Assembly: GCF_001263395.1 (NCBI RefSeq)
Contig: NZ_CP011786.1
Span: 992,001 to 1,056,000, forward strand
DNA length: 64,000 bases
Origin: Bifidobacterium actinocoloniiforme DSM 22766
GTDB lineage: Bacteria > Actinomycetota > Actinomycetes > Actinomycetales > Bifidobacteriaceae
Reading direction: 5' to 3'
This document shows, in pieces, positions 32,018 to 37,303 of this stretch (the first letter of the stretch is position 1; every line of letters starts with the position of its first letter). Under the pieces are notes generated by a model. It searched no databases. It saw only the letters and a list, made by a program, of their open reading frames with translations, and was not told the origin of the DNA. Made by a program: the position numbers and the translations under genes.

Positions 32018-32236
32018 CTACTTGTTCTTGTTCCTCTTGCCGTAGCGAGCCTCGAAGCGGGCAACGCGCCCACCGGTGTCGAGGATCTTCTGCTTACCGG
32101 TGTAGAAGGGATGGCAGTTGGAGCACACATCAACCGTCATGTGATCGCCGGGGGCGGTCGAGCGGGTGACGAACGTATTGCCGCACGAGCACGTCACCTG
32201 GACGGGATGGTAATCGGGATGAATACCCTGCTTCAT
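32018..32236 (-). CDS. rpmE: Ribosomal protein L31, zinc-binding form
   Basis: 72 residues. Starts [12 protein letters not shown], and the zinc ligands are in TCSCGNTF and [14 protein letters not shown], so this is the Cys-containing (zinc) paralogue. TAGGAGAAACC precedes the ATG. It is monocistronic with a strong terminator. Confidence 0.95.
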
Positions 32237-32533
32237 GGTTTCTCCTAGGGTCCGAAGGGATCCGGGTCGCCTGCCCCTATGGCCGACGTGAACCGGAACC
32301 AATGGCGAGTATAGCGCAGGCCCGGGAGATTGCCCCAGCGAGGACCGCCTGCCGCCGCGGTTTTCAAGAACGTCTAGAAAGACATCCTCCGCCATGCTCA
32401 CATCCCTCAACCGCATGGACCCCAGGCCTATTCCCGACTGTTTCACAACACACCGCCCATGGATGACGATTCGGAACGAACCGAGATTCCAACGCTCTGG
32501 AGGATTCAACCACTGCCCGGGAGACAGGGCGCG

Positions 32534-32563
32534 TTGACATTTTTCGAACCGTTACGCTAATAT
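32534..32563 (+). promoter_or_regulatory. Strong sigma-70-type promoter with no downstream ORF
   Basis: TTGACA (32,534-32,539), 18-base spacer, TAATAT (32,558-32,563). It is close to consensus and faces about 460 bases without a supported protein gene. Confidence 0.65.
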
Positions 32564-32569
32564 TCATGG

Positions 32570-33031
32570 ACAGGTAGAAATCTCTCGTGCATTGGGGGAT
32601 GCATGAAAACGGTTAGCCGCAAGGGGTGAAGTGCAATCCACTTCCTTCCTTGCTCTCTGAATAAAGATGTATGCCGCAAATAGAGATGGCGACCGCTGTT
32701 GGAGCTTACCTGCAATTCACGCAGCAAGGTCGTGGTTATCTTTATTCGTGAGAGATGACTGTTGCCATAACTAAATGAAGGGGATTCGCAGAGAATCACG
32801 ACCCGGACTGGTATATCCAGGCAATATAGCGGGGCGTCCGGATGAGAACTCAATGTTTGGGACCATCATCTTGCCCCGCAACTCGACAGAGTCGGGTTCC
32901 CGGTCCGAAGGGACGACAGACGCGATCTGATTCTATTCCCCCGGCTGAAGCAGGCGGTTCGCCGTTTGTGGATGCGAGAGTCAGACTGCGGTAAAGGCGG
33001 GTTCCGGCGTCAAAGCCGGGGCCCGCTTTTT
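32570..33031 (+). ncRNA. Candidate structured noncoding RNA gene
   Basis: The segment from the promoter above to a T-tailed terminator has no credible reading frame but many long-range complementary pairs: GAATAAAGAT (32,659-32,668) with ATCTTTATTC (32,738-32,747), extended by CTCTC/GAGAG; GAAGTG/CACTTC near 32,629-32,644; CCGGAC/GTCCGG and GCGGGGC/GCCCCGC between about 32,802 and 32,880. I looked for the RNase P, tmRNA and SRP RNA signatures and did not find them. It lies between rpmE and the aldolase gene, antisense to neither. A regulatory RNA is possible; function unknown. Confidence 0.4.
32997..33031 (+). terminator. Intrinsic terminator of the candidate ncRNA
   Basis: GCGGG-CCGGC stem, loop GTCAAA, GCCGG-CCCGC, then TTTTT. 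Another inverted repeat (GGAGGGCG 33,151 / CGCCCTCC 33,188) with a run of ten G at 33,162-33,171 lies further right, near the end of the aldolase gene. Confidence 0.8.
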
Positions 33032-33240
33032 CATTTTTCCTCGACCAGGTCCGAAAGCAGCACGGGTTCCACGAATCAACCAACCGTAAGGGCACCCAGA
33101 GCACACACAGAGGCGTCGACAAGCCAGCAAAGAACCTCTGCAACGCGAGGGGAGGGCGGCAGGGGGGGGGGAACCATACTCCCCCAACGCCCTCCCTTTC
33201 CGGTGAGACACGTTGAACTCGCCCCCTTGTTAGGAAACCA

Positions 33241-34149
33241 CTACCCAAGTTGGTCAGCTGCGGTTATAATGCCTTCGATGGCCCTGACCTGCTCGGCTCT
33301 GATTTGCGTCGCCGGCTCTTTGATGGCCGTGGAAACAGGCAGACCTTTGATCTTGACCGCTGCCTTGATCGCGCTGATGAAAAGGTCGGCTTGATCGTAT
33401 ACGGCCATAAGCGCGTTAATCCGCCGGGCGCAGGCGAGCGCGGTCGTGTAATCACCACCCTGCCAAGCGGCGTGCATCCGCACGAAGGTCTCAGGCTCAA
33501 CATTGGTCAAGCCGCACAGGACGCCATTGCCCCCAGCGATCCGGTTAGGCGTGTAATACTCGTCGAAGCCGGATAGGACGCTGAACGAAGGCGAGACCTT
33601 GCGGACGGCGGCAATCACCTTACGGGTGTGGCTGATCGTATCGACCGTATCTTTGAGCCCCAGAATATTGCTGTGGTCTGCCGCCAACTGGGCGATCAAT
33701 TCCGGGCTCAGATCCATGCCAGTCCTGGGAGGGAAGTTGTACAGGAGGACCGGCAGGCTGGTGGCCTGCGCGATCTGAGCGAAGTAAACGCTCGCCGTCT
33801 GCTCGCTCGGGCCAAAATAATAAGGGCTGACCGCCACGACCGCATCGGCACCAACTGTTTCAGCGTAATGGGTGAAAGCCAGGACCTCATCCATATCGGT
33901 ACCGCCGACACCCGAGAAGACCTTCATTCTGCCAGCCACGCGATTCACCGCGAATGCGAGCGCCTCCTGTTTGCTCTCCAGCGAATACGCATAGAACTCG
34001 CCGATGCTGCCGAACAGGAGCACCCCGTTCATGCCGGCATCGGCCAGGTGGTCCAGGTGCCGGCCCCATAGCTCGTAGTCGATGCTTCCGTCATCCCCCG
34101 TCACCGTAATAGACGGGCAGAACACCCCTTCAAACGCCGCTGTCACCAT
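33241..34149 (-). CDS. DapA-family aldolase, probable 2-keto-3-deoxy-L-fuconate aldolase
   Basis: 302 residues, class I (beta/alpha)8 aldolase of the DHDPS/NAL family. Visible motifs are GVLLFGSIGEFYAYSLESK, LPVLLYNFPPRTGMDLS with the catalytic Tyr, and NILGLKDTVDTI with the Schiff-base Lys. Members next to fuconate dehydratase split 2-keto-3-deoxy-L-fuconate to pyruvate and L-lactaldehyde. The exact substrate is inferred from the neighbours. AGGAGCGCAAG precedes the ATG. The operon order downstream of fucD is fucD, gntP-like, aldolase. Confidence 0.85.
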   Translation of the reverse strand: MVTAAFEGVFCPSITVTGDDGSIDYELWGRHLDHLADAGMNGVLLFGSIGEFYAYSLESKQEALAFAVNRVAGRMKVFSGVGGTDMDEVLAFTHYAETVGADAVVAVSPYYFGPSEQTASVYFAQIAQATSLPVLLYNFPPRTGMDLSPELIAQLAADHSNILGLKDTVDTISHTRKVIAAVRKVSPSFSVLSGFDEYYTPNRIAGGNGVLCGLTNVEPETFVRMHAAWQGGDYTTALACARRINALMAVYDQADLFISAIKAAVKIKGLPVSTAIKEPATQIRAEQVRAIEGIITAADQLG

Positions 34150-34281
34150 CTTGCGCTCCTCACTTGAACCGCGGTTATCACCATTATCACATCATGTGCG
34201 CGATGCTTCGCTTGCATGCGCGAACCCAACGCCCACTCTCCTGCTCGCGCGCAGTGGTTGGGCGTTGAACCGAAGCCGTCC

Positions 34282-35718
34282 CTACATGAGCGGCACGCTG
34301 AGAATCAGAACAAAAATCATCGCCACAACCGAAAGAACGCAAGTCATAAGCGTCCATGTCTTGAACATCTCCGGCAGCGTGAAACCAAAGTATTCCTTGA
34401 CCAACCACAGTCCCGCGTCATTCACGAACGAGAAGATGAAGGAGCCTGCACCTATGGCAAGGACCAAGAGGGCTATGCCAACCGGGTTAAGGCCAAGCGA
34501 AACAGCAACCGGTTCGAGGATACCCGCGGTCGTTATTGCCGAAACCGTCGAAGAGCCTGTGGCGACGCGGACGAAGGCGGCGATGGCCCAGGCGACAAGC
34601 AGAATCGATATGTGCGAGCTCTGCACGAACTGAGTAATCATATCGCCGATGCCGGTGTCAATCAGCAAAGTCTTGAAACCACCACCCGCGCCCAGAATGA
34701 AGACGATGCCAGCGATAGGCTTCAACGACTTGGCGGTTTCGTCTTGGATGCGCTTCCAGGGGAATTTAGTGACCTTGAACAGAACTACGGTCGAGAAAAT
34801 CAGGGAGAAGAGCAGGGCGATCTCAGGATTTCCGAGGAACTGAATCAGCTGCGGCACGAAAGCCTTGGAGGTGCTGAGCTTGGGAGCAATCATCGTGGCA
34901 ATCGAAGTGATCAGCAGAAGCACGGCAGGCATGATTACGCAGGTCAAAGAAAGGCCGAAACTGGGGCGCTTGGTGCCCTCCGGCGGCTGCTCGATTGCGG
35001 ACATATCGAAAGTGTCGGGGGCGCCGCGATCCACGATTTTAGTGGCGTACCTAGCGAACAGCGGGCCACAGATTATTACGGTTGGGATCGCAATCAATAC
35101 ACCAATTCCCATCGTGATACCCATGCTACCGTTTGAGAAGGTCTTCAGAGCAGCGGTAGGGCCAGGATGGGGCGGCACTAGGGCCTGCATCGCACACAAG
35201 CCGGCCAAAGCGGGCATGGCGATCATCATAATCGGCAGCTTGGAACGCCGACACACCATGATAATAACCGGGACCATAATGATAAGGCCTACGTCGAAGA
35301 AGAGCGGCAGACCTACCAGGGAGCCGATAAGTGCCATGGTCCAAGGCAGCATCTTGACCGATGAGTGGTCCACAAGGGTATCGACCAGCACGCCTGTGGC
35401 GCCGGTGACCATCAACACTTGCCCAAGCATGGCGCCCAGCCCGACGAGAATGCCAACGCTCTGCGTTGTTGAACCAAAGCCGTCGAGGAAGGCGGTGATG
35501 GTGTTCATCATGCCGTAACCCGAGCAAATACCAGTAAAAATGGAGGCGATCATGATCGCGACGAATGGGTGAACCTTGGCCGCTGTCACCAAGGCGATCA
35601 GCAAGGCGACGCCCAATACGATACTGATCAACAGGGCAGCGGGGCTAAGGTGAACTTTCGGCACTTCGGAGGCCGCCTGTACGAGCGGCGATGACAGCGC
35701 CACAATGAGCGAATGCAT
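34282..35718 (-). CDS. GntP-family aldonate permease
   Basis: 478 residues, 12-14 membrane segments. GntP signature regions are present: FDVGLIIMVPVIIMV, PPHPGPTAALKTF and the late GAGGGFKTLLIDTGIGD. GntP proteins import gluconate and related sugar acids with protons. Between fucD and the aldolase it probably imports L-fuconate or a related aldonate. GAAGGA lies before the ATG at 35,718. Confidence 0.88.
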   Translation of the reverse strand: MHSLIVALSSPLVQAASEVPKVHLSPAALLISIVLGVALLIALVTAAKVHPFVAIMIASIFTGICSGYGMMNTITAFLDGFGSTTQSVGILVGLGAMLGQVLMVTGATGVLVDTLVDHSSVKMLPWTMALIGSLVGLPLFFDVGLIIMVPVIIMVCRRSKLPIMMIAMPALAGLCAMQALVPPHPGPTAALKTFSNGSMGITMGIGVLIAIPTVIICGPLFARYATKIVDRGAPDTFDMSAIEQPPEGTKRPSFGLSLTCVIMPAVLLLITSIATMIAPKLSTSKAFVPQLIQFLGNPEIALLFSLIFSTVVLFKVTKFPWKRIQDETAKSLKPIAGIVFILGAGGGFKTLLIDTGIGDMITQFVQSSHISILLVAWAIAAFVRVATGSSTVSAITTAGILEPVAVSLGLNPVGIALLVLAIGAGSFIFSFVNDAGLWLVKEYFGFTLPEMFKTWTLMTCVLSVVAMIFVLILSVPLM

Positions 35719-35842
35719 ATGAAGTCCTTCACACTATCAAAGCGAATGATGGTACTGTGCACCGGCGGCCCATCGCCAAGCGCCGTTACAGCGCATTGAA
35801 GGGCGAAGGGCCGCCGGAGAGCGACGATGCGCAGCTTTGCGA

Positions 35843-37126
35843 TTAGCCGCGGTAGAGGTACTTTTGAGCGGTCTCTACAGTCATCTCGGTGCCATTGCCG
35901 GGAGCCGTAGGAGCCACATAGTTACCCTCGCTAATTTGGATGGGGTGGACGAAATATTCGTGCTGGTTGTCCACGTATTCGATCATCCGTCCGTCCATGG
36001 TGCCCGAGACCGCCACGTAGTCGAACATGGCGAAGTGGCAGACCGCTTCGCACAGGCCCACGCCACCGGCGTGTGGGCAGACGATCTTGTTGAACTTCTT
36101 AGCCATCAGATACTCCAGGACAACCTCCTGGGGGCCAGCCACGCGCGTGGCGTCGATCTGCATGACGCCGAAAGCGTTGGCCTGCAAGTATTGTTTGAAC
36201 ATGATTCGGTTCTGCATCTGCTCGCCAGTGGCCACGGGAATCGGGTTAATGGCCCTGGCGATGGTGGCATGTCCGATCACATCGTCGGGGCTGGTGGGCT
36301 CCTCCACCCAAGCCAGGTCGAAATCATGGAACTTGTTGATCCATTCGATGGCCTCGGGCACATCCCAGACCTGGTTGGCATCCACAGCCAGGCGCACGTC
36401 CGGGCCGATCGCCTCTCGGGCCAAGGCCAGGCGGCGCAGGTCATCGTCCACATTCCGTCCGACCTTAAGCTTGATTTGTTTGAAGCCTTTCTGCTCAGTC
36501 TCCTCTTTTGCAATCTGGACCATCTTCTCATCGGCGTAACCTAGCCAACCCGCTGCCGTGGAGTAACCCGGGTAGCCGAACTTAAGCAGGTACTCAATGC
36601 GCTCGTCCTTACCCCTTTTACCTTCTTGCAGGATCTCGATGGCCTCCTCCGGGCGCAAGGCATCGGTCAGATAACGGAAGTCCAAGGTGGCAACTAGTTC
36701 TTCGGGGTCCATCTGAGCCAGGAGCATCCATAGGGGCTTACCGGCCCGCTTTGCCTTGATATCCCACAGGGCCGAGAGGACAGCGCCGATAGCCATGTGC
36801 TCCACACCCTTCTCAGGACCCAGCCACCGCAATTGCGAATCACCGACGAACAGATCCCATGCTAGGCGCATATTGTCCAACAGCTCCTCCACGTTGCGTC
36901 CGAGGAGGACGTGCGACATGGAGTCAATAGCCCGGCAGACCACATCGTTGCCGCGACCAATCGTGAAGACGAAACCGGTGCCCTTGATGCCATCATCGGC
37001 GTCGGTCTCAACCTCCACATAAGCGGTCGAATAGTCAGGGTCGGGGTTCATAGCGTCAGAACCTGAGAGAGTCTGCGAGGTCGGAAAACGGAAGTCATAC
37101 GTTTTGACATTTGTGATAGTGCTCAT
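35843..37126 (-). CDS. fucD: L-fuconate dehydratase, enolase superfamily
   Basis: 427 residues. The enolase-superfamily barrel shows the KxK base motif (FKQIKLKVG), metal ligands in VDANQVW and WVEEPTSPDD, then ATGEQMQNR and the catalytic His region VCPHAGGVGLCE. Over its length it reads as L-fuconate dehydratase, which makes 2-keto-3-deoxy-L-fuconate. AAGGAGCC precedes the ATG at 37,126. It is divergent from a LacI regulator, which likely controls it. Confidence 0.9.
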   Translation of the reverse strand: MSTITNVKTYDFRFPTSQTLSGSDAMNPDPDYSTAYVEVETDADDGIKGTGFVFTIGRGNDVVCRAIDSMSHVLLGRNVEELLDNMRLAWDLFVGDSQLRWLGPEKGVEHMAIGAVLSALWDIKAKRAGKPLWMLLAQMDPEELVATLDFRYLTDALRPEEAIEILQEGKRGKDERIEYLLKFGYPGYSTAAGWLGYADEKMVQIAKEETEQKGFKQIKLKVGRNVDDDLRRLALAREAIGPDVRLAVDANQVWDVPEAIEWINKFHDFDLAWVEEPTSPDDVIGHATIARAINPIPVATGEQMQNRIMFKQYLQANAFGVMQIDATRVAGPQEVVLEYLMAKKFNKIVCPHAGGVGLCEAVCHFAMFDYVAVSGTMDGRMIEYVDNQHEYFVHPIQISEGNYVAPTAPGNGTEMTVETAQKYLYRG

Positions 37127-37303
37127 AAAAGGCTCCTTCGTCTTTGATAAGTGGTTACAACGGAGTAATCCCAATAGGAACTCTAAGCGAAGGTTTAGAA
37201 ATTTGCAAATCAGATTTGGAAGTTTTCTTAATCGCAGGTATCTTCACATGTATACACTTAATGACGCGAACCATGCCGTCTCATAAAACCGAAGGAGCAG
37301 GGG
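37127..37303. promoter_or_regulatory. Divergent fucD-lacI promoter region
   Basis: AT-rich spacer of 177 bases with a perfect palindrome ATTTGCAAAT near 37,199-37,208 and an AGGAGCAGGGG ribosome site for the regulator. The palindrome is a candidate operator; LacI-family sites normally have a central CG, which is absent here, so this is weak. Confidence 0.45.

What the first reader, a model, noticed from the sequence alone, without database searches (positions are those of the whole stretch)
32534..33035. Orphan promoter-terminator unit with long-range pairing: candidate new structured RNA
A near-consensus promoter, about 460 bases without a reading frame, several perfect inverted repeats up to 10 bases, and a T-tailed terminator. 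RNase P, tmRNA and SRP signatures were not found. The unit is large for a small RNA and compact enough to be an independent gene.
Basis: partly seen in the sequence, partly recalled or inferred. Interest (0 to 1): 0.6.

Follow-up and report, generated by a model that had tools for sequence, protein, structure and literature searches.

The report
Bee-bifidobacteria large structured RNA gene
A stretch between two ordinary genes in a Bifidobacterium encodes a roughly 465-base RNA that appears to make no protein, folds into an elaborate conserved shape and is present in every one of the 21 held species of one related group but matches no catalogued RNA family, so its job is unknown and worth testing.

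Summary
Window 32534-33035 (+) is a free-standing transcription unit: promoter, about 466 nt of RNA, intrinsic terminator. Sequence homologs occur in 4 congeners, and covariance models extend this to 21 of 27 genus genomes. These 21 form one clade in a tree and include Bifidobacterium xylocopae and Bombiscardovia coagulans. All lie divergent from rpmE, and all start with TTGAC(A/T). On five full-length orthologs, 126 model pairs are 95.7% intact and 33 show changes on both sides (0 of 500 shuffles; slid controls collapse). A conserved 5' G-loop is complementary to an invariant 3' bulge (UUCCCCCGGCU), which suggests a long-range pseudoknot. Rfam 15 has no match. RNase P, SRP RNA and tmRNA lie elsewhere in the genome; 6S is not found. 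No reading frame is conserved, and where checked the downstream gene is convergent, so this is not a leader. It was not found in other genomes of the family (189 searched) or class (395 searched). Function is unproven. My leading guess is a trans-acting, protein-bound RNA, possibly RNA-polymerase-binding like the 516-nt CoRP RNA of Corynebacterium (about 0.3). The rival is a C-rich antisense regulator.

The parts
32534..32563 (+). promoter: TTGACA, 18-nt spacer, TAATAT
   Evidence: a TTGAC(A/T) box at the start of all 21 orthologs
32570..33035 (+). the RNA gene, about 466 nt (start inferred as 7 nt after the -10 box)
   Evidence: inferred start, no transcript data
32573..32584 (+). small 5' hairpin (AGAG...CUCU type)
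   Evidence: helix 1; also in G002, G023, G026, missing in the other relatives
32586..32605 (+). 5' hairpin whose loop holds the G-run
   Evidence: helix 2: 100% of cells paired, 2 of 6 pairs changed on both sides; a G-loop hairpin at the same place in the other groups
32594..32599 (+). G-rich loop GGGGGA, 5' strand of the proposed pseudoknot
   Evidence: helix 3: 100% of cells paired but four pairs invariant and two changed on one side only, so supported by conservation, not covariation
32610..32761 (+). 5' domain closed by helix 32610-32615 / 32756-32761, with internal hairpins; varies in length between species
   Evidence: helix 4: 5 of 6 pairs changed on both sides; helices 5-7
32782..32798 (+). 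hairpin GGAUUCG...GAAUC, almost invariant in the five close orthologs
   Evidence: helix 8; not recognised in the other groups
32802..32912 (+). core branched domain: outer helix, two inner arms, invariant UCCGGAUGAGA and UCCGAAGGG
   Evidence: helices 9-13: 11 pairs changed on both sides
32921..32990 (+). 3' helix 32921-32934 / 32977-32990 with bulge AUUCCCCCG and an apical hairpin
   Evidence: the part conserved in all 21 genomes (CM R2)
32936..32941 (+). UUCCCC in the bulge, 3' strand of the proposed pseudoknot
   Evidence: UUCCCCCGGCU invariant in 21 of 21
32993..33035 (+). intrinsic terminator
   Evidence: covarying stem in orthologs (helix 17, 4 pairs changed on both sides)
32018..32236 (-). 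rpmE (ribosomal protein L31), divergent neighbour used as the synteny anchor; not part of the RNA

Best explanation
SHOWN (about 0.95): 32570-33035 (+) looks like a real, free-standing gene for a large structured non-coding RNA, inherited vertically in one Bifidobacterium clade. It has its own promoter, two conserved domains and an intrinsic terminator. INFERRED: the 5' G-rich loop pairs with the C-rich bulge of the 3' helix about 340 nt away and locks the domains together. It acts in trans, because the flanking genes are divergent (rpmE) and, where checked, convergent on the far side. LEADING MECHANISM (about 0.3): it works as a protein-bound RNA, most plausibly one that docks on RNA polymerase and tunes it, filling the place of 6S/Ms1, which are not found in these bacteria. 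The precedent is the 516-nt, genus-restricted, tRNA-flanked CoRP RNA of Corynebacterium.
For: Orthologs: DNA search, CM searches, always beside rpmE and divergent from it, mostly with a tRNA-CAT on the far side. Structure; folding z of -5.7, -6.8 and -5.2 in three diverged species. Non-coding. Clade: 21 of 21 members carry it and 0 of 6 other congeners (clade support 98). RNAP idea: Rfam 6S not found in the own genome; Ms1 reported absent in Bifidobacterium (PMC9130861); PMC11077062 predicts unknown RNAP-binding RNAs in Bifidobacterium, and its CoRP RNA matches in size (516 nt), clade restriction and tRNA neighbours.
Against: No transcript or protein partner has been tested. For the RNAP idea, the only support is size, context and the vacancy for 6S/Ms1. 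The ends do not pair into one long hairpin with a central bubble, as in 6S. Bifidobacteria outside the clade were not found to have it, yet they also lack known 6S/Ms1. CoRP sequence could not be compared here. The four G-C pairs of the pseudoknot never vary, so covariation neither supports nor refutes them.
Confidence: 0.35

Rival explanations
1. A trans-acting regulatory RNA that base-pairs with G-rich ribosome-binding sites of mRNAs through its invariant UUCCCCCGGCU bulge, in the way of the C-rich loops of Staphylococcus RNAIII and RsaE. The internal G-loop would mask this seed until it is needed. Works like RNAIII; not claimed to be related.
For: UUCCCCCGGCU is invariant in 21 of 21, and most of it is unpaired in the nested structure. 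Size matches RNAIII (about 500 nt, from memory). Groups B/C (16 genomes) carry a 27-38 codon ORF with a GGAG site shortly before the AUG, as RNAIII carries a small ORF.
Against: The motif has a strong partner inside the RNA itself, the G-loop. A target scan of the genome was not done. The large covarying body is more than a seed needs.
Confidence: 0.25
2. A protein-bound RNA with some other partner or a catalytic or scaffold role (as OLE, GOLLD or ROOL RNAs were described), not linked to RNA polymerase.
For: Many covarying helices, a branched core and invariant internal-loop sequence are typical of RNAs that build a binding surface.
Against: No partner gene travels with it: the far-side neighbours differ between species (ClC channel, DHDPS family, tRNA). 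No Rfam hit to these classes.
Confidence: 0.3
3. A small mRNA or dual-function RNA: in most relatives a short ORF is translated and the structure regulates it, with the G-run pairing either near (over the AUG) or far (UUCCCCC bulge).
For: ORF with Shine-Dalgarno in 16 of 21 genomes at one place; RNAalifold pairs the G-run with UUUCCC just after the AUG in groups B/C.
Against: No comparable ORF in the five-species group of the window; peptides unrelated between subgroups and, by my hand reading of G025, replacements outnumber silent changes; near pairing of the G-run shows one-sided changes only.
Confidence: 0.08
4. A divergent known housekeeping RNA (RNase P, SRP RNA, tmRNA, 6S).
For: Size range and promoter-terminator layout.
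Against: RNase P (27 of 27 genomes), SRP RNA and tmRNA are elsewhere over cut-off; 6S not matched; no Rfam match in the unit.
Confidence: 0.01
5. Fortuitous promoter and hairpins in a spacer.
For: Promoter and terminator scans alone are at chance level.
Against: Conservation and covariation.
Confidence: 0.01

Closest known systems
CoRP RNA of Corynebacterium (PMC11077062)
   Same: Actinobacterial, about 500 nt, intergenic, flanked by tRNA genes, restricted to one genus, bacterium lacks known 6S/Ms1; may overlap small ORFs
Ms1 RNA
   Same: Actinobacterial stand-alone structured RNA
   Different: About 300 nt; different synteny (HAD hydrolase/oxidoreductase); reported absent from Bifidobacterium (PMC9130861)
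6S RNA (RF00013)
   Same: Free-standing structured RNA; candidate same role
   Different: About 180-200 nt single long hairpin with bubble; no Rfam match in this genome
Staphylococcus RNAIII and C-rich-loop sRNAs
   Same: About 500 nt, many hairpins, invariant C-rich unpaired motif, small ORF in some orthologs (comparison from memory)
   Different: No homology tested or claimed; ORF not conserved; G-loop partner inside the RNA
OLE, GOLLD, ROOL large structured RNAs
   Same: Large, highly structured, clade-patchy stand-alone RNAs (from memory)
   Different: No Rfam match; single copy, chromosomal, beside rpmE; no match in phage or plasmid collections

Membership tests
Independent structured non-coding RNA gene | Compensatory base changes across orthologs | tested here: met
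   33 of 126 pairs with changes on both sides, 0 of 500 shuffles; slid controls fall to 36-50% paired
Independent structured non-coding RNA gene | Own promoter and terminator conserved in relatives | tested here: met
Independent structured non-coding RNA gene | No conserved reading frame | tested here: met
   caveat: small ORF with Shine-Dalgarno in 16 relatives, peptide not conserved between subgroups
Independent structured non-coding RNA gene | Transcript of the expected size | not testable with these tools
   no expression data
Any Rfam 15 family | Covariance score over the family's cut-off | tested here: not met
6S RNA | Match to RF00013 | tested here: not met
RNase P RNA, SRP RNA, tmRNA | Match within the unit | tested here: not met
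   found elsewhere:
Ms1 RNA | HAD hydrolase/oxidoreductase synteny | tested here: not met
   neighbours are rpmE-prfA and DHDPS family; synteny definition from PMC9130861
CoRP RNA | Sequence or structure homology to C. glutamicum 1366239-1366719 | not tested
   sequence not available here; no match in class scans
CoRP RNA | Synteny tRNA-Gln, tRNA-Glu, RNA, tRNA-Glu | tested here: not met
   rpmE on one side, tRNA-CAT on the other
RNA-polymerase-binding RNA (function) | Enriched on RNAP | not testable with these tools
   needs RIP-seq
Cis-regulatory leader | Co-directional gene downstream | tested here: not met
   downstream genes convergent in the window, B. xylocopae and the tRNA-flanked loci

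The most novel reading that the evidence does not exclude
A new class of abundant RNA-polymerase-binding RNA, not 6S, Ms1 or CoRP by descent, that evolved in one bee-linked Bifidobacterium clade and regulates transcription globally, with the G-loop/C-bulge pseudoknot as a conformational lock.
Probability: 0.25. Interest if true: 0.85.

Novelty: new variant of a known kind. Interest (0 to 1): 0.62.

Why it matters
It appears to be an uncatalogued large RNA family, conserved in all 21 held members of a clade that includes bee-associated species. It gives a concrete candidate for an open question stated in print: what takes the place of 6S/Ms1 RNA in bifidobacteria. One RIP-seq or pull-down would answer it.

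Tried and rejected
Rfam at permissive E-values: only sub-threshold hits to single hairpins (BjrC68 at 22 bits matches only the terminator region of one ortholog). Plasmid and phage collections: nothing. Viral contigs: nothing. One Erythrobacter contig with the 19-base pattern (L047): I judged it chance at about the expected rate and did not read it. Weak model hits in G129 (L104) and G016 (L074): read and rejected, the first a hairpin between other genes, the second apparently inside a gene. The rpmE flank of a genome from another genus of the family (G069): a different tRNA and no such RNA seen. Literature on bifidobacterial sRNAs: nothing on this locus in the library. Window-only inverted repeat between CCCCGGCT and the terminator: not conserved.

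Full report
1. Observation. The region lies between rpmE (ribosomal protein L31, minus strand, 32018-32236) and a DHDPS-family gene (minus strand, 33241-34149). A promoter-like site TTGACA-18-TAATAT and a terminator with a T-rich tail are present, but the scans expect 0.7 and 1.5 such sites by chance in that stretch. The predicted RNA folds with -193.7 kcal/mol against -159.2 +/- 6.1 for shuffles, z = -5.7. The longest perfect inverted repeat is 10 nt. So the description is right, but alone it would be weak.

2. Relatives. DNA search found four congeners with E-values from 1e-76 to 4e-20. In each the unit is divergent from rpmE-prfA and runs from TTGAC(A/T) to a terminator. A covariance model of the core (R1) then gave 12 weak hits (26-33 bits) in other species, all about 3.6-5.8 kb beyond rpmE on the same side and in the same orientation. 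Reading them showed the same plan: a TTGACA promoter, a 5' hairpin with a G-run loop, UUCCCCCGGCU in a bulge of the 3' helix, and a terminator. Four more genomes were found by motif and position. A second model of the 3' helix (R2) finds 21 genomes with E from 3e-27 to 2e-14 and nothing credible elsewhere among 189 genomes of the family or 395 of the class. An rpmE+prfA tree puts the 21 carriers in one clade (support 98) with no non-carrier inside. That is most simply one origin followed by strict retention. Divergence beyond detection in other bifidobacteria cannot be excluded.

3. Synteny. The RNA lies between rpmE and a tRNA with anticodon CAT whose sequence is identical in the window, G007 and G001. 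In the window about 10 kb has come between the RNA and that tRNA, and a DHDPS-family gene, a GntP-type permease and an enolase-superfamily gene lie in it. Where I checked, the gene on the far side is convergent, so there is no gene for a leader to control.

4. Structure. RNAalifold on five full-length orthologs gives 128 pairs. The named structure (126 pairs including the pseudoknot) is 95.7% intact, with 33 pairs changed on both sides against 15.7 +/- 2.7 in shuffles (0 of 500), and sliding partners by 1-3 columns drops pairing to 36-50%. On 13 diverged sequences the 3' helix keeps 97.3% of cells, with 4 of 14 pairs changed on both sides. Caveats: the structure was derived from the same alignment, and the tool warns that relatedness can inflate shuffle results. 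Orthologs from other groups also fold far better than shuffles (z = -6.8 and -5.2).

5. Pseudoknot. The loop GGGGGA (32594-32599) can pair with UUCCCC (32936-32941). The pairing is possible in all five close orthologs, including those where the loop reads GGGGAA or GGGGAG. The G-run and the C-run are present in all groups. Because the G-C pairs never vary, this rests on conservation and position. In groups B/C the G-run could instead pair with a nearer UUUCCC just after a small AUG, so a two-state switch is possible but supported there only by one-sided changes.

6. Coding. Frames of 50-51 aa in the window are not kept in relatives, and most indels are not multiples of 3. In 16 relatives an AUG preceded by GGAG opens 27-38 codons, but the peptides are unrelated between subgroups, and the window and its four closest relatives in this RNA lack it. 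I treat it as unresolved.

7. Known families. No Rfam 15 family reaches its cut-off inside the unit. RNase P is elsewhere in all 27 genomes; SRP RNA and tmRNA are elsewhere in this genome; 6S gives no match. Ms1 was reported missing from Bifidobacterium (PMC9130861). PMC11077062 argues that each species has one abundant RNAP-binding RNA and names Bifidobacterium as a place to look. Its CoRP RNA is 516 nt, genus-restricted and tRNA-flanked. That resemblance of size and setting makes RNAP binding my first guess; it is not a membership claim.

8. Verdict. A new structured RNA family of one Bifidobacterium clade: gene about 0.95, RNAP-type mechanism about 0.3, other protein-bound RNA about 0.3, base-pairing regulator about 0.25.

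Noticed in passing
32258-32302 (-): L31-Actinobacteria ribosomal leader (RF03158, 43.4 bits, over cut-off) upstream of rpmE.
   Followed up: no
33241-37174 (-): DHDPS-family gene, GntP-type permease and enolase-superfamily gene in a row (sugar-acid use?), lying between the RNA and the tRNA-CAT that adjoins it in relatives.
   Followed up: partly
L056:1294-1322 and the same place in L057-L065, L067: In the promoter spacer of most group-B orthologs an inverted repeat ACACCC-N6-GGGTGT overlaps the -35/-10 region; it could be an operator.
   Followed up: no
L056:1322-1490 and equivalents: Small ORF of 27-38 codons with Shine-Dalgarno in groups B/C; its start region can pair with the strand of the 5' G-hairpin.
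   Followed up: partly
33150-33198: A run of G just past the unit flanked by complementary C-rich sequence, forming a strong hairpin with only sub-threshold, chance-like Rfam matches.
   Followed up: no
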